The notes under the pieces were generated by a model. It did no database searches. It was given only the letters and a program-made list of their open reading frames with translations, and had not been told where the DNA came from. 64,000 nt of DNA from Gautieria morchelliformis (lineage: Eukaryota; Basidiomycota; Agaricomycetes; Gomphales; Gomphaceae). The stretch spans positions 124,001 through 188,000 of the forward strand of contig WHVA01000182.1 in assembly GCA_015179125.1 (NCBI GenBank), written 5' to 3'. Numbering within the stretch: position 1 is the first letter of the stretch; each line of letters starts with the position of its first letter. Shown one piece after another: positions 4,279 to 62,034 of this stretch. Position numbers and translations under genes: made by a program.

Positions 4279-5400
4279 GCTTGAGGAGTTCATTCCGTCA
4301 AAACATGGAATGAGATGTCATGGGGAACATCCTGCCATCGTGGGCAATGTTCCCGATCTTACTGCTTCCCATATCAGGGACGGTGGTGAACAGCATGTGC
4401 AAAAATCGGTGACACGCAGCTTCCACAGCACAGCTCCACCGGCTGAAGACATTTAATCTATGTGCCCATAGAATGCATGCGACAGTATGTCTTCTCAAAC
4501 TCAATTTTTCTGGATGACCATACCATAGTATTGGGTTCCTGTACTATTCTGGCAGTGATAATTCGGGAATGGGACGGGCTTAAGGGGAGAGTTAAGCGTG
4601 TGGGGATGAGGACCCACTGCTTTGCGCTCCAATGCCCACTGCATCGACAAGTCAAATCTTGGGCTTCAATGAGTGCTTCGAACCCTACACAAGGTGTGCT
4701 GTTTCTTGCATGCGTCATTGAGTGTACTACGCTGATGAACACAAACCTTCAGCAACATATACATGTCGTATTCTTGTTGGGGAGTTCCAGATTGTGTGCC
4801 CTTGGTTACTCAAGGAACTTGTTGAGCTCAGCTCTGGGATGATGACATGAAGAACCAAATCATTGCCGCGAACGGTGAGTAGCGCCCTGTTGTTCCTGTC
4901 GCCCTCGCTCACGAGCACTTGGGTAGGTCGATCCAGAGTATCCCTACTATCCCAGATGACCTGAAGGCCATCTACAAAACCGCGTGGGAGTTAAGTCAAA
5001 AGAAGGTGCTAGACCTCGCTGCTGACCGTGCGGTTAACCTGGCATAATTTCTTCTGGAATTGTGGACCTGATCTAGGACAATTGGCTGTGAATATCTTGA
5101 ACGAGACCTGCGATGCCTGTTCCAGTACCAACTGAATGACCTGCAATAAGTAGCTTGTCAGACATAGCCAAACTATACTTACCTATCACTGTGCTTTCAA
5201 GATTTGATCTACAAATATCCATGAGACGCGCCGCCCGCGCAGCAATATGTGAGTTCTGGGCTCTTGCTGGCCGGTTACTGTAATCAGGATCAAGAGACTG
5301 GCTGCCAAGTCCCAGACTCTGAATCAGCACATTAACTTTTCAAGCATCATGAGCAGGGTCTATGCCATGGTGTGCGATTTTTCCCACAGTGGCGTGGGTT
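4279..5400. other. Intergenic, nothing recognised
   Basis: About 1.1 kb after the last WD40 unit of NLR copy 1. Only short open frames without recognisable domains were seen. The rightmost 100 bases lead into the dispersed repeat that the copia element has entered. Confidence 0.45.
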
Positions 5401-5498: not shown

Positions 5499-5721
5499 TG
5501 TGGGACGAAGGAGATATAATAATCTGTTATTCTATATTGATCTCAAGTAGATCGTTCCTTTATATACAAAATATGGTGTCCATTATATTACCAATCTCTT
5601 CGAGCTGCTGTGCCGATGCGATGCCGGTGCACCAGCAACCCGGGGTCGAGAGCGATCTCGAACCTCCGGCTAAGTGCGTGCCGGCTCTGCCTCGGCGGTG
5701 TCATCGTCCCGATTACTAACA
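5499..5721 (-). repeat. 3' LTR of copia element
   Basis: 223 bp, TGT...ACA on the plus strand, apparently identical to 9772-9994. The pol reading frame runs 17 codons into it before stopping at 5670. Confidence 0.96.
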
Positions 5722-8700
5722 CTCCCCCTCAGCGAGAAGTCCCTTCGGTAAAATCCTAATTTCCCTAATAGATACCTATGTTGGTGCATGTCTAATCCCT
5801 TTGTAAATATGTCCGCTACGTTCTCCTTCGTCGGTACGTATGTAAGTGATGCCTCGTGAGGGGCCACTTTCTCACGGATGAAATGATATGCGACATTGAT
5901 GTGTTTGGTACGCGCATGATACGTTGCGTCATGCGATAGTGTAATGGCGCCTAGATTGTCTGATCGAAGTGACGTGGGCTGGGTTTGATCGATTCCAAGT
6001 TCTTCGATAAAACGTCTCAGCCAGATTAATTGCTTGGCGCCCTCGGTAAGTGCCATGTATTCGGCCTCCGTGGTAGATAGCGCGATCGTTCGCTGCTTCT
6101 TCGAGCTCCATGCAATGGTTCCTCCTCCTAGTATAGCTACGTAGCCACTAATAGATAGTGCGTCGTTTCTATTAGCATAATCCGAGTCGACAAATATTTC
6201 GAGGTCGAGACCAGCGTCTCGTCGGAAGATTATGCCGTCGTCACGTGACCCCTTGAGGTACCTGAGCGCGTGCTTGATCGCCGTCCAGTGCTCGGTTCCG
6301 TAAGTAGTAGTGAATTGGCTCAAGTGTTGTACGGTAAAAGCCAAATCAGGTCGCGTGCTGAGTGCTGCATACATGAGTGATCCGATCGCCTTAGCATAGG
6401 GTACTTCGGCAGTTGGACCTGTTGAGTCTATGGGTGTCGTGAGTTTGATCATTTTATGCAGGGGTGTAGATACTGAATGAGCCGTTGTCATGTTGAATCG
6501 ATCGAGTATGATGTCGATGTAATGTCCTTGAGACATGATCAGTGTTCCCTCATCCCTATTCCTCTCAACTCTAATTCCCAAGATTTTCTTCATTTCTCCT
6601 AAATCTGTTAAAGGGAATTTCCCATGAAGCTCCCCCTTGAGCTTAATCATCCCTCCTTTGGAGTCAGCAAATAGTCCAAAGTCGTCCACATATACTGATA
6701 TGACTTCGATTGAGTCCTTATCTTGTCTGATGTAGACGCATTCATCGGCTGTACTTTGATGGAAGCCGAGATCGAGTAGTAATTTGCGTAAGCGCTGATG
6801 CCAAGCTCGTCCCGATTGTTTGAGTCCGTAGAGCGCTCTGTATATTCTTAGAACGCGTCCAGATCCATCGTCAAAACCGTCGGGCTGGCGCATGTAGATC
6901 TCCTCATCTATGGTTGAATTGAGGTAGGCGCCTTTGACATCCATCATTTCGATTTCCCAATCGAGTGTGTTTGCGATCGCTAATAGAACACGTAGTGAAT
7001 CGAATTTGACCACGGGTGAGGTTATCTCGTAGTAATCCATCCCTGGCCTCTGTGTGAATCCTTGAGCCACAACCCTTGCTTTAGCCTTATCGAATTGTCC
7101 ATCCGGTTGTGTTTTGACAGCGTATACCCATCGGCAACCGATAGCTACTCGTCCGGGTGGTAGTTCTGTTAGCTCCCATGTTCCTAACGTCTTGTGTTGG
7201 TCCATCTCAATTTCCATCGCTTTCTCCCAGATCGGCGCATCATCACGTGATACCGCCGCTCTGTAATTCTCAGGTTCAGTGACGATTTCTCTCGTTATGT
7301 AAACCTGCTCGGTGCGTCCTGAATTATTCAGCTTCCGGTAATCCGGTCTCTGAGTGATACGCGCGCTCCGTCGGATCTCTGGAGCTGGCGCTTGTTCAGG
7401 TGGATCAGGAACGGTCGTCGTGTGGGGTGATGACGTCTGTGGGGTAGATGTGATCGGGTCCGGCACATGCTCGCGTGGTGAGTGCTCCCCCTCGAGCGGT
7501 GCCGTGTCGTCATCGTCGTTATCTGGGATGGGGTAGAGTTTGTTGTCGTTTTCGTCGAATGTAATATTTCTTGAAATTTGAACATGTTTTGAGGCTTTAT
7601 TGTAATACCTCCAGGCTTTTGCATGTTCTGCTACTCCGACGAATATATGCTCTTCTGCCTTTGGATCAAGTTTGGCTCGACGTTGATCCGGCACCATAAC
7701 CCAGCAATTTGTCCCGAATTCCTCTAGACGTGCTATGTTCGGCTTCTTGCCGAATAGTGCTTGGAACGGCATTGCGTCATCTCCAAGCGCTCGCGTGGGT
7801 GATCGATTTTTGATATAACACGCGTAAGCCACGGCCTCGGGCCAGAGTATTTTTGGCAGGTTCTTGGCAAATATCATTGCCCGTGCGTGCTCGAGTAAGG
7901 TCCGGTTGAGTCGTTCGGCAATTCCATTCTGGGCTGGGGAGTATGGAGCTGTGGTCTCCATGATAATGCCATATTTTGCACAAAATTCCTTGAAATTTTT
8001 ATTGACATATTCCCCTCCATTATCCGAGCGAAACCTCTTTAGTTTCTGACCTGTTTGGGTCTCGAGGAATGCCTTGTACGTCTCGAAGTGTTTGAGCGCT
8101 TCATCTTTGGTGCTCCCAAAATAGATTACGGTGTACCTCGATTTGATGTCCGTGAAAGAATAAAAGTATTTCTCACGCGATGGTCCCTCGGTCTGGGCAG
8201 GTCCCCATACATCGGATACTGTCAGGTCACCGACCTGTTCTACAGTGTCCTCGGCTCTTTTGGGGAACGGCTCCACATGCCGCTTGCCTTGTATGCACGC
8301 CTTGCACTGGCTCGGCTCGTTTGACTCGTCGATCTCAAGTCCGGTGACTAGATCGTTAGATTTCAACATCTTTATAGAATTTATGTTGACGTGCCCGAGT
8401 ATTCTGTGCCATTTGTCCCATGACCGTCCTTTTGCCGCTGCGGCAAAGTCCCGTGCCTCGACTGATCGAGTGACCCGTGCCTTCATACAGAATAGCCGCC
8501 CGCGCTTCTGTCCCTGTGCGAAGGTAACTCCGGCGCGTGATTTGAATTCGACGCCGGTGCCTGAAAATGTGGCCGTGTTGCCCTTATCAGTTAAACGCCC
8601 TACGCTGATAAGGTTGTTCGGCGCATCCGGTGCATGCTTGACGTCACGTAGTTCGATCGTGTTCGTCTTGGCACCGATCTTGAATTCCATGTATATAGTG

Positions 8701-9344
8701 CCTCGGCCTTGTGTATGTAGTACGGCACCGGGTGAAATTCCTTCGATTTCTGATGGTTCCTCGGCATAGCTAGCGAAATCATTTCGGCTTCTAGCTATGT
8801 GTGTTGTTGCCGCTGAATCGGCTAACCAGTCGGATGCGGATATAGCACTGTATGCTACCTCCTTAGATACAAATGCGAAGTCCTTTTCTTCAGCTTGTTT
8901 GACTGTTTCTTTGTTCCCTGATTTGAACCATTTCGGTGCTTGGCCCTCCTTGCCGCCACCTTTCGCCCAACAGTCCTTCACGTAATGACCCTTCTTGCCG
9001 CAATTTCGGCACTTTCCCTTTGTTGCTCCTGAGTCATCTTTCCTGGTCCTGTGACGTTGTTGCGCCTTAAGCGCCGTCTGCCGTGCCGATCCAGCTTTCC
9101 GTGCTCGATCCTCATCGAGGACCCGAGCTATTAATATATCAGCTGTTGTCCCGGCTCCACTGGCGTTTACTGCCGTAATAAACGCCGACCAAGAATCTGG
9201 TAATGACGTCAGCAACGTGTTCGAGAACTCGGTGTCACTGATGTAATGCCCCCGCGCATTCAGTTCCTGTTGAATGCCGCGGAGCTTGCGTACGTGCTCC
9301 TCCATGTTCGCGCCATCCTCGGCAAGCGTCCGGAAGAAATCTCT
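5670..9344 (-). CDS. Copia gag C-terminus and pol polyprotein
   Basis: Open for more than 1,220 codons after the gag stop. Counting from the Met at 9305: CCHC zinc knuckle CRNCGKKGHYVKDC at 99-112; aspartic protease DSAATTHIA at 163; GAG-pre-integrase HRILGH...CKACIQGKRH at 300-342; integrase core with D365, D428 (RSDNGGEY) and E464 (AERLNRT), a D-x35-E spacing; proline-rich linker about 600-650; reverse transcriptase about 693-935 with YVDD at 872-875; RNase H from FVDSDYAN at 1038 with LSTTEAEYMAL near 1076. All the catalytic residues I can place are present. The frame is the same as the upstream gag segment, separated only by TGA at 9345-9347. Confidence 0.96.
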   Translation of the reverse strand, partial: RDFFRTLAEDGANMEEHVRKLRGIQQELNARGHYISDTEFSNTLLTSLPDSWSAFITAVNASGAGTTADILIARVLDEDRARKAGSARQTALKAQQRHRTRKDDSGATKGKCRNCGKKGHYVKDCWAKGGGKEGQAPKWFKSGNKETVKQAEEKDFAFVSKEVAYSAISASDWLADSAATTHIARSRNDFASYAEEPSEIEGISPGAVLHTQGRGTIYMEFKIGAKTNTIELRDVKHAPDAPNNLISVGRLTDKGNTATFSGTGVEFKSRAGVTFAQGQKRGRLFCMKARVTRSVEARDFAAAAKGRSWDKWHRILGHVNINSIKMLKSNDLVTGLEIDESNEPSQCKACIQGKRHVEPFPKRAEDTVEQVGDLTVSDVWGPAQTEGPSREKYFYSFTDIKSRYTVIYFGSTKDEALKHFETYKAFLETQTGQKLKRFRSDNGGEYVNKNFKEFCAKYGIIMETTAPYSPAQNGIAERLNRTLLEHARAMIFAKNLPKILWPEAVAYACYIKNRSPTRALGDDAMPFQALFGKKPNIARLEEFGTNCWVMVPDQRRAKLDPKAEEHIFVGVAEHAKAWRYYNKASKHVQISRNITFDENDNKLYPIPDNDDDDTAPLEGEHSPREHVPDPITSTPQTSSPHTTTVPDPPEQAPAPEIRRSARITQRPDYRKLNNSGRTEQVYITREIVTEPENYRAAVSRDDAPIWEKAMEIEMDQHKTLGTWELTELPPGRVAIGCRWVYAVKTQPDGQFDKAKARVVAQGFTQRPGMDYYEITSPVVKFDSLRVLLAIANTLDWEIEMMDVKGAYLNSTIDEEIYMRQPDGFDDGSGRVLRIYRALYGLKQSGRAWHQRLRKLLLDLGFHQSTADECVYIRQDKDSIEVISVYVDDFGLFADSKGGMIKLKGELHGKFPLTDLGEMKKILGIRVERNRDEGTLIMSQGHYIDIILDRFNMTTAHSVSTPLHKMIKLTTPIDSTGPTAEVPYAKAIGSLMYAALSTRPDLAFTVQHLSQFTTTYGTEHWTAIKHALRYLKGSRDDGIIFRRDAGLDLEIFVDSDYANRNDALSISGYVAILGGGTIAWSSKKQRTIALSTTEAEYMALTEGAKQLIWLRRFIEELGIDQTQPTSLRSDNLGAITLSHDATYHARTKHINVAYHFIREKVAPHEASLTYVPTKENVADIFTKGLDMHQHRYLLGKLGFYRRDFSLRGSVSNRDDDTAEAEPART
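5722..5735 (-). other. Polypurine tract of copia element
   Basis: Immediately inside the 3' LTR the minus strand reads CGCTGAGGGGGAG, a purine-rich run in the place where plus-strand DNA synthesis of LTR elements is primed. Confidence 0.7.
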
Positions 9345-25252: not shown

Positions 25253-26874
25253 TCATTCACCATTCCCGCCTGTCTCTTCCCTTAGAGTTAGATCGCTGAA
25301 CGTCTCCTCGAACCTCCTCGTGGCTTGGATGTAACTGAACAGCGATTTCATCGCCTTGGGTCTGGCCAGTAGAACTCTCGTCGAGTCTGCTCCTCTGCGT
25401 AGCTTTCGTTTGAGTGCTTCCCTCTGTTTTGCGTAGCTTGGACATCTAAACAGGTAGTGGTGTACCGTTTCATCGGCCCTTCTGCATGCCGGGCACTTGG
25501 GTGATGGCGCCTTGCCGATCTTTGCTAAGTGCTTGTTCAATGCTACGTGCCCTGTCCTGAGCTGTACTAGCAGCGTCGCGTGCTTGCGTGGCATTCTTTC
25601 TGTGAGTCTGGCAAACGCTGCAGATGGTAGTGAGGGGTCTGTTCTGTGTGCGATAGCTGCGCGCGGGGACTTAGCAAATGTTGCCTTCGCCTGTCCTCTG
25701 AGCTCCCTCTGATGTCTCTGCAGCTCCGCCGATTTGCTCGCCGGCAATCGCCCCCTGCACTCTATGGGTATGCATTGCTCCTGGCTGGACTCTCCCCTCG
25801 CCGCTCTTTTGGCCTCCTCGTCCGCCCTTTCGTTCCCGCGCACTCCCTCATGTCCGGGAACCCATCTCATTATGAGTTCGGTCCTTGCCCGTCGGGAGAC
25901 CACTCCCTCTATCTGTCGATGCAGCGCGTTGACCAGATATTGCCCAGATATTGAACTCTCTTGCCTCGTCGTCTGTATCGCTGCTTGATTGTCGGCCGCG
26001 ATCATGTATCTTGTTTGTCTCTCTTCGTTCAGCAGTTTTGCTCCTAATGCTGCCCCCACCAGCTCTGCCTCGAACACCATGTGTTCCTCCTCTGGCCCTA
26101 GGCATAGTCGCACTACCTTTGTCTCTATACCCTTGTTGTATAGTATTGCTGCCGCGCCGACCCCCCCATCAATACATGAGCCGTCCGAAAATATTTTGAT
26201 GTCTGCGCTGTCGGTCCTGACTTCCTCGATCGCCCGTTCCTTATCACTTGGGATCCTGATCTTGGAAGCGGGCTCCCATTTGGGACCGAGCACGACCGGC
26301 TGTATTTTCTCCATACGGTCCGGGTCGAGTCCATACGCGTGCAGTATTTCATGGAGGGGGGCGCGGTGCCGCTTGACGTACCTTTTGGCTGCTCTTCGGA
26401 TCCTCGGTGCAAGTGGGTGGGCTTCTGGCAGGCATACCATGCATGTGGCGGCTCTGTGGATGACTTTGGATACTAGGAGGCGGAACGGTAGTAGGTTCGC
26501 GTGGGCATCTAGCAGGTCGTTAGCGGTAGATCTCATGGCGCCGGTGATGAATAGCGCAGCTTGTCGTTGAACCCTGGCAAGTTTGTTTATGAAACCTTTC
26601 GTGCCCTCGCTTCTTTCTGAGCCTGGGACAAGAAACACGTCAGCGGCATACAGCATTCTGGGTACGGCTACCGCTAGATAGTATCTTCGCATGTGTTTGG
26701 CGGCGGTTCCTTTGGACGGTTTTGCCAACCTCTTGTACTGGTTGATAAACCTCTCCCCCTTGGCCAGCGCATAGTTGGTGTGGTCTTTGAACCTGAGCTC
26801 TTGGTCGAGTAGCACTCCCAAGAACTTGTGCGTCGTGGTTGGCTTGATCGTGTGCTGGCCTATTGTAAAGATAT
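25253..26874 (-). pseudogene. LINE ORF2, C-terminal part (RT end, RNase H, zinc motif)
   Basis: Continues the RT after the hairpin element: DIFTIGQHTIKPTTTHKFLG, then LLDQELRFKDHTNYALAKGE. The RNase H domain has IFSDGSCIDGGVGAAAILY, FEAELVGAALGAK, AADNQAAI and MRWVPGHEGVRGNERADEEA, with its acidic residues in place. The C-terminus has CPACRRADETVHHYLFRCPSY, the C-x2-C-x6-H-x4-C-like knuckle of Tad/I-type elements. The stop is at 25253. It is intact in itself but severed from its start by the insertion. Confidence 0.93.
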
Positions 26875-26878
26875 CTAT
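26875..26878. other. Target-site duplication CTAT, left copy
   Basis: CTAT here and at 29505-29508. Deleting the element plus one copy gives the continuous RT reading PSIKIDIFTIGQHTIKPT on the minus strand. Confidence 0.9.
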
Positions 26879-27058
26879 CTCAAGCCTTAGGTCACAAGAG
26901 CACGACAGAACTTGACCAATGTGTGGTATTCTGATGCTACGTAGTGACAGTGTAAGGGTAAGATGCGATCAACCTGGGGAACCGCCGGCGGTTCCCACGC
27001 ACTACTATACAGTGGGGTCTTGTGGACCCCCCCCCCCTCTGAATCCACTTCTTTACAC
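26879..27058. repeat. Left terminal direct repeat of the hairpin element
   Basis: Contains GATGCTACGTAGTGAC, the perfect 20-bp palindrome GGGAACCGCCGGCGGTTCCC (26977-26996), CACGCACTACTATACAGTGG and a GGGGTC/GACCCC hairpin followed by a C-run. It ends ATCCACTTCTTTACAC. Same order and orientation as 29325-29504. Confidence 0.85.
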
Positions 27059-27139
27059 CCTCCCCTTCTAGAAGGAACCCACCGGGTGAGCCAAAAGAAG
27101 CACCCCTTTGACCTTGAGAAAGGGATGGGTGTGTGGACC

Positions 27140-27640
27140 AGGTCATTCTGATGTACCTCAGAATAACCGCAGATCTGATGCCTCAGATCTGACATGAATG
27201 GCATGATGCCATGACATGGCATCATGGCAGATGTGTTGGCATAGTGCCAACACATCTGTTCTGGTGTTCATCATTCTGAAAACCAGTGGTTGTGCCGGCT
27301 TCGCCGGCACTCCCCAGTTGTAGTGGGTGGTTGGTTGGTTTGGGGGCATGGTTCTTCCCCCTCTGAACCGAAACCCACGGTTGAGAACAACTTGAATGCT
27401 CTCAAACCCACAGACAGGTGATGTCTGTGGGGAACTGAACAGCCAATGATCTAAGCATCATTGGTGCCTAACTGCGAAGGATAGCAGTTATGCAGCCATA
27501 GGACCTGGCAGGGCCCTATGCAAGGAATAACCAAGCGGTCAATACTTGACTACTTCATGGCCAAACAGGCCAGCGGCTGCATACAGCCGCTGGGCATTGT
27601 GTCCATGGACCTGGACACAACGGATGTGCATTTGTGTGCA
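27140..27640. repeat. Array of distinct short hairpins
   Basis: At least eleven non-identical stems in 500 bases. ATTCTGA at 27145 pairs with 27158; CAGATCTGA 27170 with 27183; CATGATGCCAT 27202 with 27216; CAGATGTGTTGGC 27228 with 27246; GTGCCGGC 27292 with 27303; CCCACAGACA 27407 with 27422; CCAATGAT 27443 with 27457; AACTGC 27470 with 27484; CCAGCGGCTG 27570 with 27584; TTGTGTCC 27597 with 27613. CATAGG near 27496 also pairs with CCTATG near 27514. Each stem has a different sequence, so this is not a tandem repeat. Confidence 0.9.
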
Positions 27641-27734
27641 CGCCAGGCAGAGGCACACTTTCTGACGATCTGTTGGATCATCTTGCAGCTGTCTGTGGGG
27701 GCAGCCGGTTGCTCTTGAGGTTCATGCCCGAACC

Positions 27735-29249
27735 TTACGTCCTGTTCGACCGGGACGGCTGGTGGCGGCATTCGCCGCTTGTCCCGCTCCTTTCGGCGTG
27801 GGTCTTCCATGTCGTGACCGCATTTGTTAGCTGCGGACTGTCACGCACTAATGGCGGTGGCTCCGCAGGGGGCCGGCAATGTGGCGGTTGCGACATATGC
27901 CGCAACTGGGAGCTTCTGGGGACCTTTGGTGGGTCCCCAGGTGCGGATGCACGCCCCATCGGGTGTGCCGCACCCTCCCCCCTTGACAGGAGGGAGCATG
28001 GCGGCCGGGACCGCCTCTGGGCCCGCGCGCGAACACGGACGCGGCGGTGGGCCGGCCCTGGCACGCGGCAGGGAGCCCCAGCAGCCTGGGTGTCTGCTGG
28101 GGACCTGGTGCGCCGCATGGCACCGGCCGCTGACGGGGGCGGCCCTGCATGCGGCCGCGAGCGAGGGCGGGTGGAGCGGCGCTGCGGGCGTGGCCTTCGC
28201 GGCGCCTGGCGGCCTCTGGGGGCCCCTTGAGGGCTCCCAGCGGTGGGTGCACATCCTTTGGGACGTGCAGCCCCGTTCCCGCTCACTGGGAACGAGCGGG
28301 GCAGCCGGGGCGCGCGGATGTCGTTGCGCGGCGTGCGCGACATCTGGGCGGCTCTGGGGACCTCTGGAGGGTCCCCAGAGGTGGATGCACGCTCTACAGA
28401 GCGTGCACCACCATTCCCGCTCGCTGGGAGCGAGCAGGGCGGCCGGGATGGCGCCTGGGGCCGCGCGCGACCGCGGATGACGCTGCGCGCCGGGCGCGGC
28501 GTCTGGCCGACTCTGGGGGCCTCTGGAGGGCCCCCAGAGGTGGATGCATGCTCCAGGGAGCATGCACCACCGTTCCCACTCGCTGGGAAGGAGCAGGGCG
28601 GCCCCTGGGGCCGCAGGTGAGGGTGGATGGCCGCGGGCGCCAGGCGCGGCATTCGCGACGTTTGGCCGGTTCTGGGGGCCTCTGGAGGGCCCCCAGAGGT
28701 GGATGCATGCTCCAGGGAGCATGCACCACCGTTCCCATTCACTGGGAACGAGCGGGGCGGCCGGTATGGCACCTGGGGCCCGCGGATGACGCTGCGCGGT
28801 GAAGGCGGCTCACGCGGGTCCTTCGCAGCTCTGGGGGGCTCCTGGGGGTTCCCCAGGGTGGATGGACACACCTTGGAGCATGTGCCGTCGTCCGTGTGCG
28901 CCTGGGGCAACCTAGAGCGCGGATGCGCGGTGTGGGTGGTGGAGGCGGCGTCGACGAGTGCAGCGTCACGTCGCATGTCACGCACAGCGTGGCCGCCCTG
29001 TCTGGCCGGCTGCTGGAAGGCCTGAGGGTGCTGGAGCTGCCGTGGCGCGTGGATGCGTCCCAGAGGGACGCCATCGCGTTCGTCCATGGCCCTGCAGAGG
29101 CTTTGCCAACGCTCCTCGCTGGCCTCTGCCCAGAACCACGCCTCGCTGGGTGTCATCTCGCACGCCTTCACCCAGCGAGTGAGCCGTCCCTTCCTCCTCT
29201 CCATCATCGAGTCCAAATCGGACTCGGAATATTCCCGCGATGAAAACAT
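27735..29249 (-). CDS. Long open frame in the hairpin element, coding status doubtful
   Basis: 504 codons from an ATG at 29249. The first 45 residues look like a real protein (DSMMERRKGRLTRWVKAC then EMTPSEAWFWAEASEERWQ), and the open frame continues upstream as RRWFAIENAVAAM to a TAA inside a hairpin near 29300. Beyond about residue 100 it becomes Pro/Arg/Gly-rich repeats that mirror the 160-bp array, where GC-rich DNA keeps many frames open. No family recognised. The N-terminal segment may be the only coding part, or a captured host fragment. Confidence 0.3.
   Translation of the reverse strand: MFSSREYSESDLDSMMERRKGRLTRWVKACEMTPSEAWFWAEASEERWQSLCRAMDERDGVPLGRIHAPRQLQHPQAFQQPARQGGHAVRDMRRDAALVDAASTTHTAHPRSRLPQAHTDDGTCSKVCPSTLGNPQEPPRAAKDPREPPSPRSVIRGPQVPYRPPRSFPVNGNGGACSLEHASTSGGPPEAPRTGQTSRMPRLAPAAIHPHLRPQGPPCSFPASGNGGACSLEHASTSGGPPEAPRVGQTPRPARSVIRGRARPQAPSRPPCSLPASGNGGARSVERASTSGDPPEVPRAAQMSRTPRNDIRAPRLPRSFPVSGNGAARPKGCAPTAGSPQGAPRGRQAPRRPRPQRRSTRPRSRPHAGPPPSAAGAMRRTRSPADTQAAGAPCRVPGPAHRRVRVRARAQRRSRPPCSLLSRGEGAAHPMGRASAPGDPPKVPRSSQLRHMSQPPHCRPPAEPPPLVRDSPQLTNAVTTWKTHAERSGTSGECRHQPSRSNRT
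27910..28870. repeat. GC-rich tandem array, about 160-bp unit
   Basis: The hairpin CTCTGGGGnCC-loop-GGnCCCCAGAG opens units near 27914, 28213, 28351, 28512, 28671 and 28833. In the middle units it is followed by GCATGCTC/GAGCATGC and GTTCCC/GGGAAC stems. Spacing is 138-162 bases except for the first gap. Paired arm changes (ACC/GGT in one unit, GCC/GGC in another) keep the stem intact. Confidence 0.85.
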
Positions 29250-29288
29250 CGCAGCGACAGCGTTCTCAATGGCGAACCACCGTCTGCA

Positions 29289-29314
29289 CTGCAGTCTTTT
29301 TTAAAAGACTGCAG
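29289..29314. other. Perfect hairpin near the right end of the element
   Basis: CTGCAGTCTTTT (29289-29300) and its exact complement (29303-29314) are separated by two bases. Confidence 0.9.
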
Positions 29315-29324
29315 AAGGTTCAAG

Positions 29325-29504
29325 AGTGGCTTGATACCTGTTTATCACAAGGGCAGGCTGAATTCAAGCAGTTTGTGGAAATTCAGATGCTACGTAGTGA
29401 CGGTGACACGTAAAGATTAAGCTGGGGAACCGCCGGCGGTTCCCACGCACTACTATACAGTGGGGTCTTGTGGACCCCCCCCCTCTGAATCCACTTCTTT
29501 ACAC
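29325..29504. repeat. Right terminal direct repeat of the hairpin element
   Basis: Direct repeat of 26879-27058, with the same 20-bp palindrome at 29425-29444 and the same ATCCACTTCTTTACAC end, followed by the CTAT duplication (29505-29508). The C-run is shorter than in the left copy and there are several substitutions in the outer part. Confidence 0.85.
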
Positions 29505-31852
29505 CTATTTTGATCGACGGTCGTGCTATGGGCTTTGTCTTTTTGTCCGCTGATGGGTCCCTCTCTCTTTTCCTGGTGAGTCCCATCAGTCCAAACTTGT
29601 CGACGGCAAATTGGCACTTATGCATGTGTGCCCATGTCAGCGCTCCCTCATCTCTCGTCATTATGTCGGCTAGCTTGTTAAACACTTCCTGCAGGCTCTT
29701 ACCTTCCGCTAGTATCGTGGTGTCATCTACAAACCTGACTGCATCTTCCCCTCTCGCTGTGCGTACCACCTCAAGGAGGTCCCCGTTGTAGTACTGATAC
29801 GCGATCGCCGAAAGCGGACACCCCTGATCCATGCCTCTTCTGACCTCCATCATTGGTGTAGTGAAGTCGTCGAAGCTCATCGTAGTTCGCCTCCCCTCGA
29901 CTTTCCTCCTGATCCAGCTGGTATATTCTTGGGGGATCCCTCTCAGTCTCATATTGTGTATCAGCCTGTCTAATGTGATACTAGGGAACGCGCCTTTGAT
30001 GTCCAGAAAGAGAAGGCCTAGGACTTTCCCCCATCTCCACGCGTCCATCGCTGCGCTGACCGTGTAGTGTATCGCGTCAGTAGCAGTGCGGCCCGGTCTG
30101 CACCCAAAGTGGTTGCTGGGCAGCAGGCGTTTGAGTTCTGTCATCTTTACTAGGTCTTCTGCCATGCAAGACGAGAGGACCTTTCCAATTGTGTCGAGCA
30201 GCGCTATCGGGCGATACGCTCCTGGGGCTGCGTAATCTGTTTTTACTGGTTTTCGCAGTACCCGTGTGACCGAGTCTCGCCATTGATCAGGGTATGTCAC
30301 GAGAGTGAACGTGGCCCTGAACAGAGGGCCTAAGTAGCTGACCAATGTGTCTACGCACTGCTTGATTAGTACATTAGGTATTCCGCTCATGCCTGGAGCT
30401 TTAAAGGGGTTCAGCTTAGCTATTGCCCTTCGGATCTGCTCGTCGGTGATGTGGGTAAACGGGAACGCTTCTGGAGGGTACGAGCCGTCGGTCGAGGTGT
30501 TTTCATTTGTTGGGCCGAACTCCGGAAAGAACGTGCCGTAAAGCATTGTGGCTTTTTGCTCGTTGGTGCTGGCTACCCATTTGGTGCCGTCATCGTGTTT
30601 GGCTGCCACCACCGGCACTCTGGCCCTTCCACCATCCGACGGTTCAGCTGCTGCGTATTTGTGCGCTGTCCACACGGTCTTTTGGTCTATGCCCTCCAAG
30701 AAGTCCTCCCAATGTTCCCTTTTCGACTTCTCTATGGCGCTCGCGTATCTGTTTCTGGCGGTCTTGTACCTCTCGTGTGTATCGTGTGCGCCGTGCCTCC
30801 TGTTCGCATAGGATTGCCGTCCTAGCCTTCTGGTTTCTGTCCGAAGTCGCGTTAGCTCTAGTGACCACCATCGTTTCATATAAGGCGAGGGCTTAGTCTT
30901 GGGTATCAATTCCTCTACTAAATACAGGATCGCCATGGTGAGGGCTCCTAGGTTGCGATTGAATTCTCTCACGTCAGTCGGGATGGGCTCCGCGATGTCG
31001 TTTCTGAGTCTGTCCGCAAGCTCCTTGTTGAATTCTTTCCAGTCAACTTGTCGGAAGTTGGGTTTCGGCGTTTCTTCTGTCTCCGCTGTGCTCGTGTCTA
31101 ATATCGTGTCTATCGGATAGTGGTCGCTTTTTGCTGGCTGTTCTTCTGGGATTGATGTGCAGCTGATTAGCATCTCGGCCATAGATGCGGACAAGAATAC
31201 GTTGTCGGTTCGTGTTCGGTTGCCTGTAGACATCGCTGTTAGTGTGGGTATGCTTCTTGGTAGCATCATCTGTAGGTCACGCTCAACGGTGAGGTCAATC
31301 AGCAGCTGAGCTGCGTCGAGGTTGTGCCTTGTGAACAGGAGCGAGTTCCGCGTGTCATCCCACTGTGGGTGATGTCTGTTGAAGTCGCCAACCCACAGCA
31401 TTCCAGCGATGTCTTCCTGCGTGTCGTCGTTCCGCCGTGCTTGATCCTGTAAGTGCCTCCGCATGTTGTGTATGCTGTCAGCGTTCGTGCAGTCGCAATA
31501 GATGTTGTATATTATTACTGTACCTGCGCCCGTTCTGAGCTTTATCGCTGTTATGTCAGGAGTGCCCACATCCAGCGCCGTCCATTCGCTTGTCGCTATC
31601 CTTTTGCTTTACAAGGATCATCGCTCTCGTGCGCTTCTCCTTATCCAGGTAATGCGTTTTCGGGTATATCGTATACCAATGAGGGGTGGCCCTGGCGTTC
31701 CCTAGGAAGTCGATATATGGTTCTTGCAGCGCGAGGATGTCGTATTTTTCTGGGGAGCACCGTTGGAGAATGTCGGCCGTGACAGTAAGTGATTTGTTGG
31801 CATTCTGTTGTCTGACGCGCAAGTATTTTGTTTCGTTGGTGTTGTCGCTCAT
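29505..31852 (-). pseudogene. LINE ORF2, N-terminal part (endonuclease and RT)
   Basis: ATG at 31852 (MSDNTNETKYLRVRQQNANK). The AP-endonuclease motifs are LALQEPYID, VGDFNRHHPQW and SDHYPI. A frameshift near 31590-31610 separates ILVKQ from RIATSEWTALDVGTPDITA. RT motifs follow: RPIALLDTIGKVLSS, FLDIKGAFPSI, MDQGCPLSAIAYQYY and VRFVDDTTILA, the last carrying the catalytic DD. The RT is cut after RPSIKI by the hairpin element. The RT belongs to the Tad/I-like group of non-LTR elements. The ORF2 product would nick target DNA and copy the element RNA, but this copy is broken in two places. Confidence 0.93.
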
Positions 31853-56647: not shown

Positions 56648-59600
56648 ATGAACAACGTGAAGGGAAACGACCAGGTCGCAGTAGCGTAAGTCCATGATGA
56701 CTTTTCTACTGAGCCAACTGTTCAGTCTCCACCCAGAAGTATTCCCGCAGCAATCAAGATTGCAGGGAGGACTCCTTCGTTTGCGCTGTCCAACGTATAC
56801 TGACTCTTGACGGTCGACCACAGACATGAAATGCAATCACCATCCCAATGTCCGACTGTTCGGCAAACGTCCTGGCAAATATTACGTGAAACTCTTTGTC
56901 GATGAGGATGTCAAGAAGACGGCCGTAGCTGCGAGAGGCAATACTGCCTCATGGGATGAGCCGTTCTATTTGTGCGTTTAATTCCAGTGGTATCTTCACG
57001 TAGATCTTAAATCCATTCCCAGCAACTACTTGAAGGGGGGTTCCGTATTAGGCATCGAAGTCTATAGGCATCATACATTTGGTAGCGATGAGTACATTGG
57101 CGGTGCGAAGGAACAGATTGAATTACTGCTTGAGGAAGCAGCAACAGGAGGTCAGTCCTCGTTGCTCAATGACTGAGTGCACACGTAATCATCGAACTCA
57201 GCGGCCGTTTCTCTCAAACTGCGTAAATACGACGAGGCAGGGAACATGCATGAGGTTCAGACTGTCCTAGAGTTCACCATTTCGTCTTTTGCGATGTCCG
57301 ACGACGCGCAGGAGGTCCAGTTGAGCGAAGCAGTCAGCGGAACGAACGTGGTCGATAGTACGAACCCCGCGCCGTCCGGAATTATTGAAGCAGGGAACGT
57401 GGTCGACGGCGTCATTTCCACCACTAATAATACTGTCATTCCGACAATGGCGGCTTGGGATCCACTCCTGGACAAGATTAAGCTGTTTACCGAGATCGTG
57501 GATGGGATCTCCGAGGTATGGGTCAAACGTCGGCGGTCTCCATCTCATGTACACGGTTTGCTTGATTCTAGGTCCATCCTTATGCGAAAATCGCATTGTC
57601 TATCCTGTCTAGTGTGCCCAAGGTAGATCTATCCTATGCGCCAGGTGACTTGATATATCTGACGTCTGGCCTAGACGATCATTGCTCAGAGGGACCGGGA
57701 CAATAGCATCCATGGTCTGACTAAAATTATCGGAGACACCTATGCATTCGTTCATCTGGCAGAGCCGCTGAAAAAATTGAATCGCAGAAGTCAATCATCT
57801 TAGCCTTGGCGCAACAGACGGTAGAGTGCAGCTATTTTATCCGTGCCTACGCAAAAAACAAGGATTTCTGTACGTTGAACCCACTGTCAGGTGGCCAAGG
57901 CTGATGATCTTTGTTCAGGGAAAAGAACCGCGGAAAATCTGGTGTCGGATGTCGACAGCAAGGTCAAACAATACCAGGAATCTTTCAATAATCTCAAGCT
58001 GGATTTAGAACAACATGCCGTGATTCATACTGAAATCACTGCACGACATGTTGAAGTCACTGTACTACGTGTTCTGACTGTTGTCGGCGATATATGTGAG
58101 TCGTCTGGTTTCAGGCCTTTCCCGAGCCTGATACACCTTGCAACCAGCCGTGGAAGTTCATCTTGATGACATGCCCTATGCAGCTGGAGCTGGATGCAAT
58201 CCTAAAAAAGGATGTTTGCCGGGTACTCGCGAGAAAGTTATTGGGGAGATCTGCGACTGGGCCAACCAGCATAGCGACGATACTCCCCGGATATTCTTCT
58301 TGAATGATGTTGCGGGTTCCGGCAAATCTGCGATTGCTCACGAGGTCGCTCGACGATTTGATAAACTCAAACGTCTCGGGTCGTCGTACTGTTTTGACCG
58401 TGATCATCCGGCAGAACGATCCCCCGAGAATATCTTTAGCACTATTGCTCGTGATCTGGCTGATCTGGACCCACAACGCAAAGCATCGTTGGTGAAAGTG
58501 GTCGGAGACCAGAGAGCCCTTCGAACCACACGCATGCCTCATCAGCAGTTCCAGAAGTTCATTTTAGATGCCGCCCATGGGCTAACTACCATCGGACCGA
58601 CTGTGATCGTCATTGATGCATTAGATGAGAGCGGAGACCAGAAATCTCGCGAGGATCTCTTGTCTGTCCTTGGGAACGAAGCTGCAGAACTGCCGCCTAA
58701 CTTCCGCATTCTCATCACCTCCCGTTCCGAACAAGACATCCATGGCGCCTTTCTTGGGAAGAAGCACGTGCTTTCCAGGTCCCTGAAGGATATTGATCCG
58801 AAGCCTGCCGATGCCGTCGCACGCTTTGTGAAAGATGAACTAGGTAACATTACGGCCCTCGAGCGCAAATGGCCCAACGATGGCTGGTGTCGATTATTAG
58901 TCGAGAAATCTGAAGGTCACTTTCAATGGGCGTCCACGGCTTGTCGATTTGTCAAAGGAGATGGGAAGGGTGGTCGCGTTGCTGTTAAGCAACTGGAGGA
59001 ACTTTTAGTCAAGAATCTCCGTGGGATGGATAACCTGTATCTCGGGATCCTCAAGCAGATATTCGGCGATGGCGATGACTTGACGGATGATGTCAAGCGT
59101 CGCTTTCGCTTGGTGATGGGCTGCATCCTGACTGCCAGAGAACCGCTCCCGATGTCTGCCCTGCAGAAGCTGTGCCATGGAGACGACTCTGGTACAGAGG
59201 TTCATGCAATAGTTGGACCCATGGGGGCTCTGTTAAGCCTTCCTACCCAAGACTCTGACCCAATCAGCCTGCTGCACATGTCTTTTCGTGACTTCTTGAC
59301 AGATCGCGACCGGAGTGAAGCATACTACATCGATACATCTTCACACCATGACGGCCTTGCACTCTCATGCTTGCGCGTGATGATGGAAGAACTTTGTTTT
59401 AACATTTGTCAGCTTGAAACTTCGCATCTGCGCAATGATGATGTGGTCGACTTGGTGACACGGACCAAGAGGTATATATCCCCACAACTTTCCTACTCTT
59501 GCCGTTTTTGGGCGGACCATGTTCGCGCCACTACCTTTATACCGGAAATATGTGCAAATGTCATGGAGTTTTTCGAGACTAAGCTACTCTACTGGCTAGA

Positions 59601-62034
59601 AGTTTTGAGTTTGATCAAGAAGGTACCCGAAGCATCAGCAGCGCTGTCGTCAATAATGGACTGGAGTCAGGTGAGTGCTCGAGTTGTTATGAGCTCCGAC
59701 GTGAGCCTAATGAACTTCAGGATAATGACATTACAGCATTCGTAATGGATACCAGCAATTTTGTACATACGTTTGGGAGTGTAACCTCTCAGAGTGCTCC
59801 GCATCTCTATTTGTCGGCACTCCCGTTTGCACCTGAAAGGTCGAAACTATGCGAGACTTACCTCTCACGGTTTCCACGACTACTCCGCGTCGAAACTGGG
59901 AAAGCGATGACGTGGCTACCTATTCAAACCGTTCTGGTGGGCCACACCGGCCCCGTCACGTCGGCGGCGTTCTCGCAAGACGGCAAGCGCATCGTCTCCG
60001 GGTCTGCTGACAAAACGATCCGTGTGTGGAATGCAGACACCGGGGAGGTCATTTTGGCACCATTCGAAGGCCACACTGGCAGCGTCACGTCGGTGGCGTT
60101 CTCGCAGGATGGCAAGCGCATCGTCTCCGGGTCTTCTGACCAGACGATCCGTGTGTGGAATGCAGACACGGGGGAGGTCATTTCACGACCATTTGAAGGC
60201 CACACCTCAGGCGTCACCTCGGTGGGGTTCTCGCAAGACGGCAAGCGTATCGTCTCTGGGTCTTTTGACAAGACAATCCGTGTCTGGAATGAAGACACTG
60301 GGGAGGTCATTTCAACACCATTTGAAGGCCACACCGACTGGGTCACGTCGGTGGCATTCTCGCCGGACGGCAAGCGCATTGTCTCTGGGTCTTATGACGA
60401 CATGATCCGTGTGTGGAATGCAGACACCGGGGAGGTCATTTCAGCACCATTCGAAGGCCACACCCACTGGGTCATGTCGGTGGCGTTCTCGCACGACGGC
60501 AAGCGCATCGTCTCTGGGTCTCATGACAAGACGATCCGTGTGTGGAATGCAGACACCGGCGAGGTCATTTCAACACCATCTGAAGGCCACACTGACTGGG
60601 TGACGTCGGTGGCATTCTCACATGATGGCAAACGCATTGTCTCCGGGTCTTTTGACAAGATAATCCGTGTCTGGAATGAAGACACTGGGGAGGTCATTTC
60701 AGCACCATTTGAAGGCCACACCGACTGGGTCACGTCGGTGGCATTCTCGCCGGACGGCAAGCGCATTGTCTCCGGGTCTTATGACAAGACGATCCGTGTG
60801 TGGCATGCAGATACCGGGGAGGTCATTTCAGCACCATTCGAAGGCCACACCAATGCTGTGGCATCGGTGGCATTCTCGCAGGACGGCAAGCGCATTGTCT
60901 CCGGGTCTTATGACGAGACGATTCGTATGTGGAATGCAGACACCGGGGAGGTCATTTCAGCACCATTTGAAGGCCACACCGACTGGGTCACGTCGGTGGC
61001 GTTCTCGCATGACGGCAAGCGCATCGTCTCTGGGTCTCATGACAAGACGATCCGTGTGTGGAATGCAGACACCGGCGAGGTCATTTCAACACCATCTGAA
61101 GGTCACACTGACTGGGTCACGTCGGTGGCATTCTCACATGACGGCAAGCGCATTGTCTCCGGGTCTTATGACAAGATGATCCGCGTGTGGCATGCAGACA
61201 CCGGGGAGGTCATTCCAGCACCATTCGAAGGCCACACCGGCACCGTCACATCTGTGGCGTACTCGCAAGACGGCAAGCGCATTGTCTCCGGGTCTGCTGA
61301 CAACACGATCCGTGTGTGGAATGCAGGCACCGGGGAAGTCATTTCAGCACCAATCGAAGGTCACACTGGCACCGTCACGTCGGTGGCGTTCTCGCAGGAT
61401 GGCAAGCGCATCGTCTCCGGGTCTTCTGACAAGACGACTCGTGTGTGGAATTCAGACACCGGGAAGGTCATTTCACGACCATTCGAAGGCCACACCGATG
61501 GCGTCACGTTGGTGGGATTCTCGCAAGACGGCAAGCGCATTGTCTCTGGGTCTTCTGACAAGACGATCCGTGTATGGAATGCAGACACTGGGGAAGTCAT
61601 TTCACGACCATTTGAAGGCCACACCGATGGCGTCACGTCGGTGGGGTTCTCGCAAGACGGCAAGCGCATTGTCTCCGGGTCTTTTGACAAGACGATCCGT
61701 GTGTGGAATGCCGACACTGGGGAGTTCATTTCAGCACCATTCACAAGTCAAGCACCTAGTTAGTAGCTGTTACCCCTTGATTTTCTGGAATGTGATGAAA
61801 TCTGCTAATATATCTTGCACAGCTATGGGGCCTGGATTTCAAAATGAGTCAAGGCTAGAAAAAGGCTGGTTATTAAACTCACCCTCAGAACTTTTATTCT
61901 GGATACCACCCTGGTCACAACTAGGTTTGTGGTGGCCTGCAAACACTGCTGTCATTGGGAAGGGGTCCACAAAGCTTGATCTCAGCCGGTTTGAGCATGG
62001 GAATTCATGGATGCAATGCAGAGATGCTGCATGA
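56648..62034 (+). CDS. NLR copy 3: C2-NACHT-WD40 STAND protein, one-base lesion
   Basis: Eleven exons: 56648-56685, 56759-56778, 56824-56971, 57023-57150, 57202-57515, 57572-57622, 57675-57869, 57919-58095, 58148-59670, 59721-61758, 61823-62034. They sum to 4,844 nt, one short of 1,615 codons. C2-like domain ([49 protein letters not shown]), helical region, NACHT from about residue 380 with Walker [12 protein letters not shown] (near 58311) and Walker [11 protein letters not shown] (near 58604), then SFRDFLTD...YYIDTS. Fourteen WD40 units follow (59938-61743) and a C-terminal exon with [16 protein letters not shown] and [13 protein letters not shown]. The missing base is in A6 at 57771-57776, where copy 2 indicates seven positions; without it the frame stops at once. 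The family comprises cytoplasmic signal-transducing ATPases linked in other fungi to non-self recognition; the ligand here is unknown. Confidence 0.92.
59938..61743 (+). repeat. Fourteen near-identical 129-bp WD40 units
   Basis: Each unit encodes 43 residues of the form GHTxxVTSVAFSxDGKRIVS followed by [23 protein letters not shown]. Fourteen units fit two seven-bladed propellers. Variation is concentrated at unit positions 4-5 (GP, GS, SG, DW, HW, NA, GT, DG), 13 (Q/P/H), 23 (A/S/F/Y/H), 25 and 40. Units 4-7 and 8-11 resemble each other more than their neighbours. Confidence 0.95.

What the first reader, a model, noticed from the sequence alone, without database searches (positions are those of the whole stretch)
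26879..29504. Hairpin-packed mobile element of unknown type
A precisely bounded 2626-bp insertion made almost wholly of short inverted repeats: more than ten different stems in 27140-27640, then a GC-rich tandem array in which every unit repeats the same set of stems. It has direct repeats at its ends, a 4-bp target duplication, non-TG/CA termini and no recognisable transposase, RT or integrase. LTR elements, TRIMs, MITEs, Helitrons and retrozymes each fail at least one of these points. Stems differ in sequence, so the secondary structure rather than the sequence seems to be kept. A structured RNA or single-stranded DNA intermediate mobilised in trans is one inference.
Basis: partly seen in the sequence, partly recalled or inferred. 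Interest (0 to 1): 0.92.

Follow-up and report, generated by a model that had tools for sequence, protein, structure and literature searches.

The report
Hairpin-packed retrotransposon borrowing helper's end
This is a fungal jumping element that copies itself through RNA but has lost a usable end of its own, and its copies carry that end taken from a larger relative, which leaves a traceable record of which helper moved them.

Summary
The hairpin excess is real, but the bounds and the "non-TG/CA, 4-bp" claims are wrong. The element is 26864-29503, starts TG and ends CA, with a 5-bp duplication (CCTAT); removing it and one CCTAT restores the interrupted LINE frame. Its sense strand is minus. 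[quoted passage not shown]

The window copy belongs to group 1, whose two terminal repeats are asymmetric in the same way in the 14 complete copies. U3 matches within a copy. The 3' R-U5 is not its own: on average 96% identical to the nearest H lineage, 82% to its own 5' repeat. Interiors that are 97.4% alike carry different H types. Best explanation: the RNA is reverse-transcribed from H's minus strong-stop DNA transferred onto its 3' R, and the second jump uses R instead of the primer site.

H coding DNA shares the hairpin excess, and inverted loops occur. This suggests template switching as their source; a packaging role is not excluded. Steps beyond the sequence evidence are inferred, and H's reverse transcriptase was not seen. 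New variant of a known kind.

The parts
26859..26863 (.). target-site duplication CCTAT (3' side of the element in its sense)
   Evidence: with the element and one copy taken out the LINE frame has no stop across the junction
26864..29503 (-). whole element, 2640 bp, TGTAAAG...CTTTACA; sense is the minus strand
29327..29503 (-). 5' terminal repeat: own U3 (first ~88 nt) plus own R and a pseudo-U5 that lacks the TTTACA end (R limits inferred)
29310..29326 (-). degenerate primer-site region (CTCTTGAACCTTCTGC; helper has CCTTTTTGAACTATCCTGC, copy L043 ACCTTTTTGAACTTTCTGC)
   Evidence: no tRNA matched
28998..29249 (-). 84-codon ORF start (MFSSREYSES...), found in group 1; no Pfam match; the frame runs on to 27735 in this copy, but its length varies widely between copies; selection not tested
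27846..28900 (-). GC-rich array of ~159-bp units, each with the same set of hairpins
27662..27845 (-). 184-bp segment 87% identical to the leader/gag-start region of helper H (L031:5568-5751)
   Evidence: found in 5 of 6 copies tested, not in L043
27070..27661 (-). block of tandemly placed perfect hairpins, aligned in 32 copies of both groups
27058..27069 (-). polypurine tract AGAAGGGGAGGG next to the 3' LTR
26864..27057 (-). 3' LTR, 194 bp: own U3 (about 26969-27057) joined to helper-type R-U5
26864..26968 (-). R-U5 of helper type A (98% to H copy L042)
29504..29508 (.). target-site duplication CCTAT (5' side of the element in its sense)

Best explanation
The window copy is a member of group 1 of a non-autonomous LTR retrotransposon family. 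Its RNA has a 5' end with its own R and pseudo-U5 but no usable U5 terminus (no TTTACA end, degenerate primer site), and a 3' end with polypurine tract, U3 and R. It is copied with a larger LTR family, H. H minus-strand strong-stop DNA (H R-U5) transfers onto the group-1 RNA's 3' R and primes synthesis through U3, polypurine tract, hairpin interior and on to the RNA's own 5' end. Plus strand made from the polypurine tract (U3-R-U5 of H) then re-anneals by R, not by the primer site. The product has own U3 at both ends, own pseudo-U5 at the left and H's U5 at the right, and integrates with a 5-bp duplication. Because the right-hand U5 lies downstream of R and should not be transcribed, H would have to supply it anew in every round. 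Shown: copy anatomy, duplications, U3 concordance, H identity of the right R-U5, different H types on interiors that are equally alike, junction scars in two left repeats. Inferred: the strand-transfer order, R limits, co-packaging, that H supplies the enzymes. For the hairpins I think template switching during copying most likely made and perfected them (about 60% likely), with an added packaging role possible.
For: Group 1 (13 of 14 complete copies; L025 left out of the means because an insert breaks its left repeat), aligned letters only: U3 right vs own left mean 96.6%, U5 right vs own left 82.0%, U5 right vs best of 5 H LTRs 95.7%, U3 right vs best H 83.5%. Group 2 (11 copies): 97.5, 98.3, 85.3, 82.3. 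U3 pairing within copy (14 copies, 76 columns, poly-G columns set aside): 2 of 20000 permuted pairings as low; R-U5: 18435 of 20000. With gaps counted, type A right R-U5s (5 copies) are 98-99% to H L042 or L031 and 83-85% to H L037; type B (10) are 94-99% to H L037 and 82-86% to H L042. Interiors (500 nt, LTR left out) are as alike between types as within them: A-B 97.4%, A-A 97.2%, B-B 97.6%, while U5 is 87.0, 95.8 and 96.1% (without L048, L049, L043; with them the interior means are 92.8, 89.5, 95.8). The nearest interior neighbour has the same U5 type in 9 of 18; in the tree B needs 6 changes (shuffled mean 6.2), A 5 (4.6). L015 and L016 left repeats carry the right-type U3/R junction. H: LTR 207-214 bp; gag with zf-CCHC over its cut-off and a 62% relative with Ty3_capsid, Retrotrans_gag and protease matches; U5 types A and B at 380 and 698 genomic places, group-1 copies included. 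The element keeps an H leader/gag segment. Hairpins: excess in H gag against synonymous shuffles (8 vs 1.0, 0 of 100); inverted loops.
Against: The interior trees are poorly resolved (1 of 15 and 0 of 11 inner branches starred), the starred branches force only 1 change for each type, and type C does group in the 3' tree (4 of 500 shuffles as low), so the trees alone do not rule out single origins. Type C copies (L021, L038, L043) are only 85-90% to the five H copies in hand (88-92% by aligned letters), so their donors were not seen. U3 concordance is partial: the own right is at least as close as any other right in 8 of 14. H's RT was not shown: none of the 150 scored RVT_1 hits (of 4604 candidates) was tied to H. 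Ty3_capsid and Retrotrans_gag stay under their cut-offs in the L031 gag (22.3 of 29.1 and 23.0 of 24.1 bits). The priming tRNA is unidentified, and L043 still has a primer-like site. Hairpins: of 6 H coding pieces, 3 exceed all 100 synonymous shuffles, one is reached by 6 of 100 and two do not stand out (stem >=7); a Copia pol ORF in the window is also raised (2 of 100; 0 of 100 at stem >=6).
Confidence: 0.74

Rival explanations
1. The H-type R-U5 came onto the right LTRs by DNA recombination or gene conversion with H LTRs after insertion.
For: H-type LTRs are very common, and the copies in L017 and L020 even sit inside H copies.
Against: All 14 complete group-1 copies have it on the right only, joined at the same U3/R place, with duplications present. 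None of the 11 complete group-2 copies has it.
Confidence: 0.07
2. Group 1 is a DNA transposon (MITE-like) with short inverted ends TGTAAAG/CTTTACA, moved by a transposase or integrase, and the inner repeats are passive.
For: Short inverted ends, 5-bp duplications, left and right repeats unlike.
Against: U3 is more alike within copies than between them, a polypurine tract is kept, the sister group has normal LTR pairs, and the different H R-U5s have no place in this model.
Confidence: 0.04
3. H import happened a few times only, and recombination among group-1 copies then shuffled the U5 types (as in Onsen bursts), so H is not needed in each round.
For: First-template-switch recombination within a family is frequent in Onsen (PMC5668417, passages). 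The trees do not force more than one origin per type.
Against: The strong-stop donor is the RNA 5' end, and there 13 of 14 complete group-1 copies carry pseudo-U5 without TTTACA (the fourteenth, L025, has its left repeat broken by an insert). The H-type U5 lies past R and should not be in the RNA (inference).
Confidence: 0.12
4. The hairpins are kept by selection as RNA structure (packaging, dimerisation or escape from silencing) and are not by-products of copying errors.
For: Hairpin block conserved in 32 copies of both groups. Paired double changes between array units, e.g. G-C 23 against A-T 22 of 46 at one position (on hairpins selected for at least 7 pairs). An H leader segment, where packaging signals often lie (recalled), is kept beside them.
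Against: Copies lose pairs freely: 117 mismatches to 11 paired double changes. Inverted loops (GAA/TTC in L013; CAAG/CTTG, CAAA/TTTG and CCC/GGG in the array, no chance control run) and the excess in H gag fit template switching, reported to create hairpins (PMC8794818, passages).
Confidence: 0.35

Closest known systems
TRIM and other non-autonomous LTR retrotransposons (e.g. Cassandra; Helenus in fungi; PMC10886601, abstract and outline seen)
   Same: Short LTRs, no enzymes, PPT, 5-bp duplications in fungal Helenus, moved in trans by an autonomous LTR family.
   Different: 2.4-3.4 kb with a hairpin-packed interior and a helper gag piece. Group 1 has no own U5 end and carries the U5 of another family.
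Onsen recombination at the first template switch (PMC5668417, passages seen)
   Same: R-mediated minus-strand transfer between two co-packaged RNAs gives LTRs of two parents.
   Different: There within one family and not in every copy (5 of 32 new insertions had one parent). Here between families, seen in every complete group-1 copy, leaving the two LTRs unlike.
Ty3 plus-strand transfer to R and U5 at the minus-strand 3' end, primer site not inherited (PMC5371799, passages seen)
   Same: The second jump proposed here uses the same kind of landing site.
   Different: In Ty3 the two LTRs end identical (recalled); here U5 is not carried over to the left end.
LTR-mediated retroposition of cellular RNAs (reviewed in PMC5408686, passages seen)
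   Same: A foreign RNA is copied by LTR machinery through template switches.
   Different: There chimeric retrocopies of cellular genes; here a recurrent family with its own U3, PPT and R.

Membership tests
LTR retrotransposon (non-autonomous) | TG...CA ends and a constant 4-6 bp target duplication | tested here: met
   of 25 complete copies (in 40 fetched stretches) 20 exact 5 bp, 5 with 4 of 5 bases
LTR retrotransposon (non-autonomous) | Polypurine tract next to the 3' LTR | tested here: met
   AGAAGGGGAGGG in the 32 rows (L017 and L033 with one change each)
LTR retrotransposon (non-autonomous) | Both LTRs of a copy alike over their whole length | tested here: not met
   Group 1: U3 yes (96.6%), U5 no (82.0%); met in 11 of 11 group-2 copies. 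For group 1 I therefore say 'descends from and works like', a variant.
LTR retrotransposon (non-autonomous) | tRNA primer site after the 5' LTR | tested here: inconclusive
   A shared site (CTTTTTGA / CTTTTTTGA) follows the LTR in H and group 2 and is degraded in group 1 except L043; no tRNA was matched
TRIM | Under about 1 kb with a very short interior (recalled) | tested here: not met
   25 complete copies are 2416-3397 bp
Retrozyme | Hammerhead ribozyme in the LTRs (recalled) | tested here: not met
   only a mir-31 match at E 0.58, below its gathering score, in a scan of 26500-30000 against Rfam
Helitron / MITE | CTRR end without duplication / long terminal inverted repeats (recalled) | tested here: not met
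Helper H as Ty3/Gypsy element | gag of Ty3 type with CCHC knuckle | tested here: met
   zf-CCHC over its cut-off, Retrotrans_gag and Ty3_capsid at E 9e-5 and 1e-4 but under theirs; a 62% relative passes all three
Helper H as Ty3/Gypsy element | RT, RNase H and integrase in gypsy order | tested here: inconclusive
   the middle of H was not available; (150 of 4604 candidates scored) did not tie RT hits to H

The most novel reading that the evidence does not exclude
A satellite-type LTR retroelement that is obligately two-parent: it brings the RNA from R to R, another family brings the strong-stop DNA, so each insertion carries the helper's U5 as a paternity tag. The second strand jumps at R, which frees the 5' end from needing U5 or a primer site. 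The reverse transcription that moves both families also writes hairpins by template switching, and the element has become an array of them that serves as its packaging signal.
Probability: 0.3. Interest if true: 0.8.

Novelty: new variant of a known kind. Interest (0 to 1): 0.6.

Why it matters
Which helper moves a non-autonomous retroelement is usually guessed from shared LTRs. Here each insertion appears to record its helper lineage in its own U5, which would make helper use countable from the genome alone. It would also show in a natural family that LTR retrotransposition can run on strong-stop DNA from another family with no own U5 end. The joint hairpin excess in an element and its helper offers a place to test whether copying errors, rather than selection, pack genomes with RNA hairpins.

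Tried and rejected
My first orientation assumption (plus) was wrong: the tract AGAAGGGGAGGG and the helper's ORF direction showed that the sense is minus. Autonomous partner at C161: the insert there is an unrelated Gypsy element with its own ~376-bp direct repeats. The 504-aa ORF over the array: from the same start the open length is 21 to 572 aa in 12 of 14 complete group-1 copies and the start was not found in 2, so I do not treat the array as coding; the start has no Pfam match and no homologue in the protein search. Ribozymes and tRNA: none found. Hairpin-block covariation as proof of structure: too weak. RVT_1 search to place RT in H: not informative. The left end of L027 (departs from the family near the U3/R junction) was not interpreted.

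Dropped rows: of 40 fetched stretches, 25 gave complete copies for pair tests; alignment A1 used 32 copies, leaving out L039, L048, L049 (L042 added by hand) and stretches without a right end; L025 is left out of the means; L048, L049 and L043 are left out of the second set of means, the first set has them. U5 types were assigned by eye.

It corrected 'interiors 98-99% alike' (my note) to 97.4% between types; the 97-99% given there for type A is 98-99%.

Papers: passages seen in PMC5668417, PMC5371799, PMC8794818, PMC5408686, PMC5491270; abstract and outline of PMC10886601; all others search listings only. Searches that could have shown a non-autonomous LTR family taking U5 from another family: (listings capped at 12 to 20 papers; one search found none). 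None listed was recognisably this, judged from titles and abstract starts, in that library only.
Full report
What is there. Comparison with 40 fetched stretches moved the boundaries: the element is 26864-29503, TGTAAAG...CTTTACA, between two CCTAT. It sits inside a LINE; with the element and one CCTAT taken out, one frame has no stop across 1200 bases of LINE. Of 25 complete copies, 20 have an exact 5-bp duplication and 5 have 4 of 5 bases. 66 places in the genome carry the 3' LTR/polypurine junction with up to two mismatches.

Hairpins. 28 perfect hairpins against 2.47 in shuffles, and none in two flanks of about equal length. Seven other copies tested have 20-34 against 1.45-2.35. The excess is therefore a property of the family.

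Orientation and anatomy. The sense strand is minus: AGAAGGGGAGGG lies just before the 3' LTR, and the ORF of the helper reads that way. The interior holds a group-1 ORF start, the GC-rich array, a 184-bp piece 87% identical to the leader/gag-start region of H (in 5 of 6 copies tested), and the hairpin block.

Two groups. Group 2 (11 complete copies) has ordinary LTR pairs. Group 1 (14, including the window) has a full 3' LTR (194 bp in the window copy) and a 5' repeat that lacks the U5 end and has a degraded primer-site region, except that L043 keeps more of it and L025 has an insert there. The clean comparison is (aligned letters only): in group 1, without L025, the right U3 equals the own left U3 (mean 96.6%) but the right U5 does not equal the own left U5 (82.0%); it equals that of H (95.7%). 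In group 2 everything is own (97.5 and 98.3%; U5 to H 85.3%).

Helper H. Fragments in L042, L031, L037, L017 and L020 show an LTR of 207-214 bp whose R-U5 is of the kind found in group 1 and whose U3 is related but different. One H copy (L031), itself split by a group-2 element, is read from its 5' LTR into an open gag frame with a CCHC knuckle over its cut-off and Retrotrans_gag and Ty3_capsid under theirs; a 62% relative passes all three and has a protease match. At least 140 gag copies were scored, of 2410 candidates. The 3' end of H carries an ORF without Pfam match, 150 hits scored of 1358 candidates. U5 types A and B occur at 380 and 698 places with up to 2 mismatches (backward-pattern controls 0; group-1 copies included). 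Among the 200 places listed (of 1078) I count by eye 18 same-strand pairs 8.2-9.7 kb apart, 7 of them with a scored gag hit between, which gives the size of H. H's RT was not seen.

The key result. With gaps counted, right R-U5s of group 1 fall into types: A in 5 copies (98-99% to H L042 or L031), B in 10 (94-99% to H L037), C in 3 (85-90% to the H copies in hand); A copies are 83-85% to H L037 and B copies 82-86% to H L042. The interiors next to them are equally alike within and between types: A-B pairs 97.4% (36 pairs, 95.4-98.5), A-A 97.2%, B-B 97.6%, while their U5s (aligned letters) are 87.0, 95.8 and 96.1% (leaving out L048, L049 and L043, whose 500-nt windows match the others less well; with them 92.8, 89.5 and 95.8 for the interior). 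The nearest interior neighbour has the same U5 type in 9 of 18. In the trees A and B do not cluster (B 6 changes, 298 of 500 shuffles as low; A 5, 500 of 500) but C does in the 3' tree (4 of 500), and the well-supported branches force no more than one origin each, so the argument rests on the distances. U3 pairs within copies beyond chance (2 of 20000 permutations as low), R-U5 does not (18435 of 20000). L015 and L016 carry, in the left repeat, the U3/R junction of right-hand type, as expected from a plus strand copied from the right end and landing near R.

Mechanism. In ordinary LTR reverse transcription both U5s come from the RNA 5' end (recalled). In group 1 the right U5 does not. Since it lies past R it should not be in the RNA, so the simplest source is strong-stop DNA made on H RNA and transferred by the shared R (CACTACGTAGCATC). 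First-switch recombination in R is documented in Onsen (PMC5668417, passages). As the group-1 RNA's own 5' end was not consumed by priming, the minus strand can run to that end, and the plus strand can land on R; landing on R and U5 is described for Ty3 (PMC5371799, passages). The result is the observed asymmetric product. These steps are inference.

Hairpin origin. Against synonymous shuffles (stem >=7) H gag has 8 hairpins vs 1.0 (0 of 100); of four 3' ORF copies two are 0 of 100, one 6 of 100, one has none; the mid piece is 28 of 100. An unrelated Gypsy (18, 29, 100 and 100 of 100 for its four ORFs), the LINE (62 and 100) and an NLR gene (49) do not stand out, but a Copia pol ORF is raised (2 of 100; 0 of 100 at stem >=6). 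Inverted loops occur: in 1 of 17 block hairpins (L013, GAA to TTC) and in array stems (CAAG/CTTG, CAAA/TTTG, CCC/GGG); the 11 of 71 listed are overlapping views or single changes in part, and no chance control was run. L043 shows an imperfect inverted repeat where most others have a perfect one. Template switching is reported to create hairpins (PMC8794818, passages). Array units show paired double changes (hairpins were chosen for 7 or more pairs, 90 and 88 of 170 segments, so pairing itself is biased). In the block, unpaired changes outnumber paired ones. I therefore favour origin by template switching and leave a packaging role open.

Verdict. A real and unusual variant of a known class, with a mode of copying that I did not find described in the searches made.

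Noticed in passing
window 25253-26821 and 29383-31569 (-): LINE with endonuclease, RT, RNase H and zf-RVT domains, split by this element; the frame is open across the healed junction.
   Followed up: partly
window 5670-9305 (-): Copia-type pol ORF of 1211 aa without a stop (RVT_2, rve); raised hairpin count.
   Followed up: partly
window 58138-61763 (+): NPHP3-N/NACHT-type ORF next to a WD40 ORF with 14 WD40 stretches in a 129-bp tandem array (14 copies, 86% match): an NLR-like gene with much-alike repeats.
   Followed up: no
L017:1-1465 and 4304-4894; L042:3-527; G000 generally: ORF at the 3' end of helper H, 150 hits scored, open frames up to 710 aa, no Pfam match for the pieces tested; the only two homologues found are from Gautieria.
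   Followed up: partly
L017 (C393) and L020 (C317): Group-1 copies at the same place inside two H copies, with similar flanks: either a duplicated segment or an H copy that moved with its passenger.
   Followed up: no
L027 left end (C267): Left end departs from the family near the U3/R junction into unlike sequence: possibly a copy cut at the RNA 5' end, which would mark the start of R.
   Followed up: no
G000:C249:456481 (+) and 458462 (-): Two LTR/polypurine junctions facing opposite ways 2 kb apart: inverted pair or composite copy.
   Followed up: no
G000:C202, C363, C200: Divergent relatives (60-68%) of the group-1 ORF start at contigs that are not in the element list: older copies or the source of that segment.
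   Followed up: no
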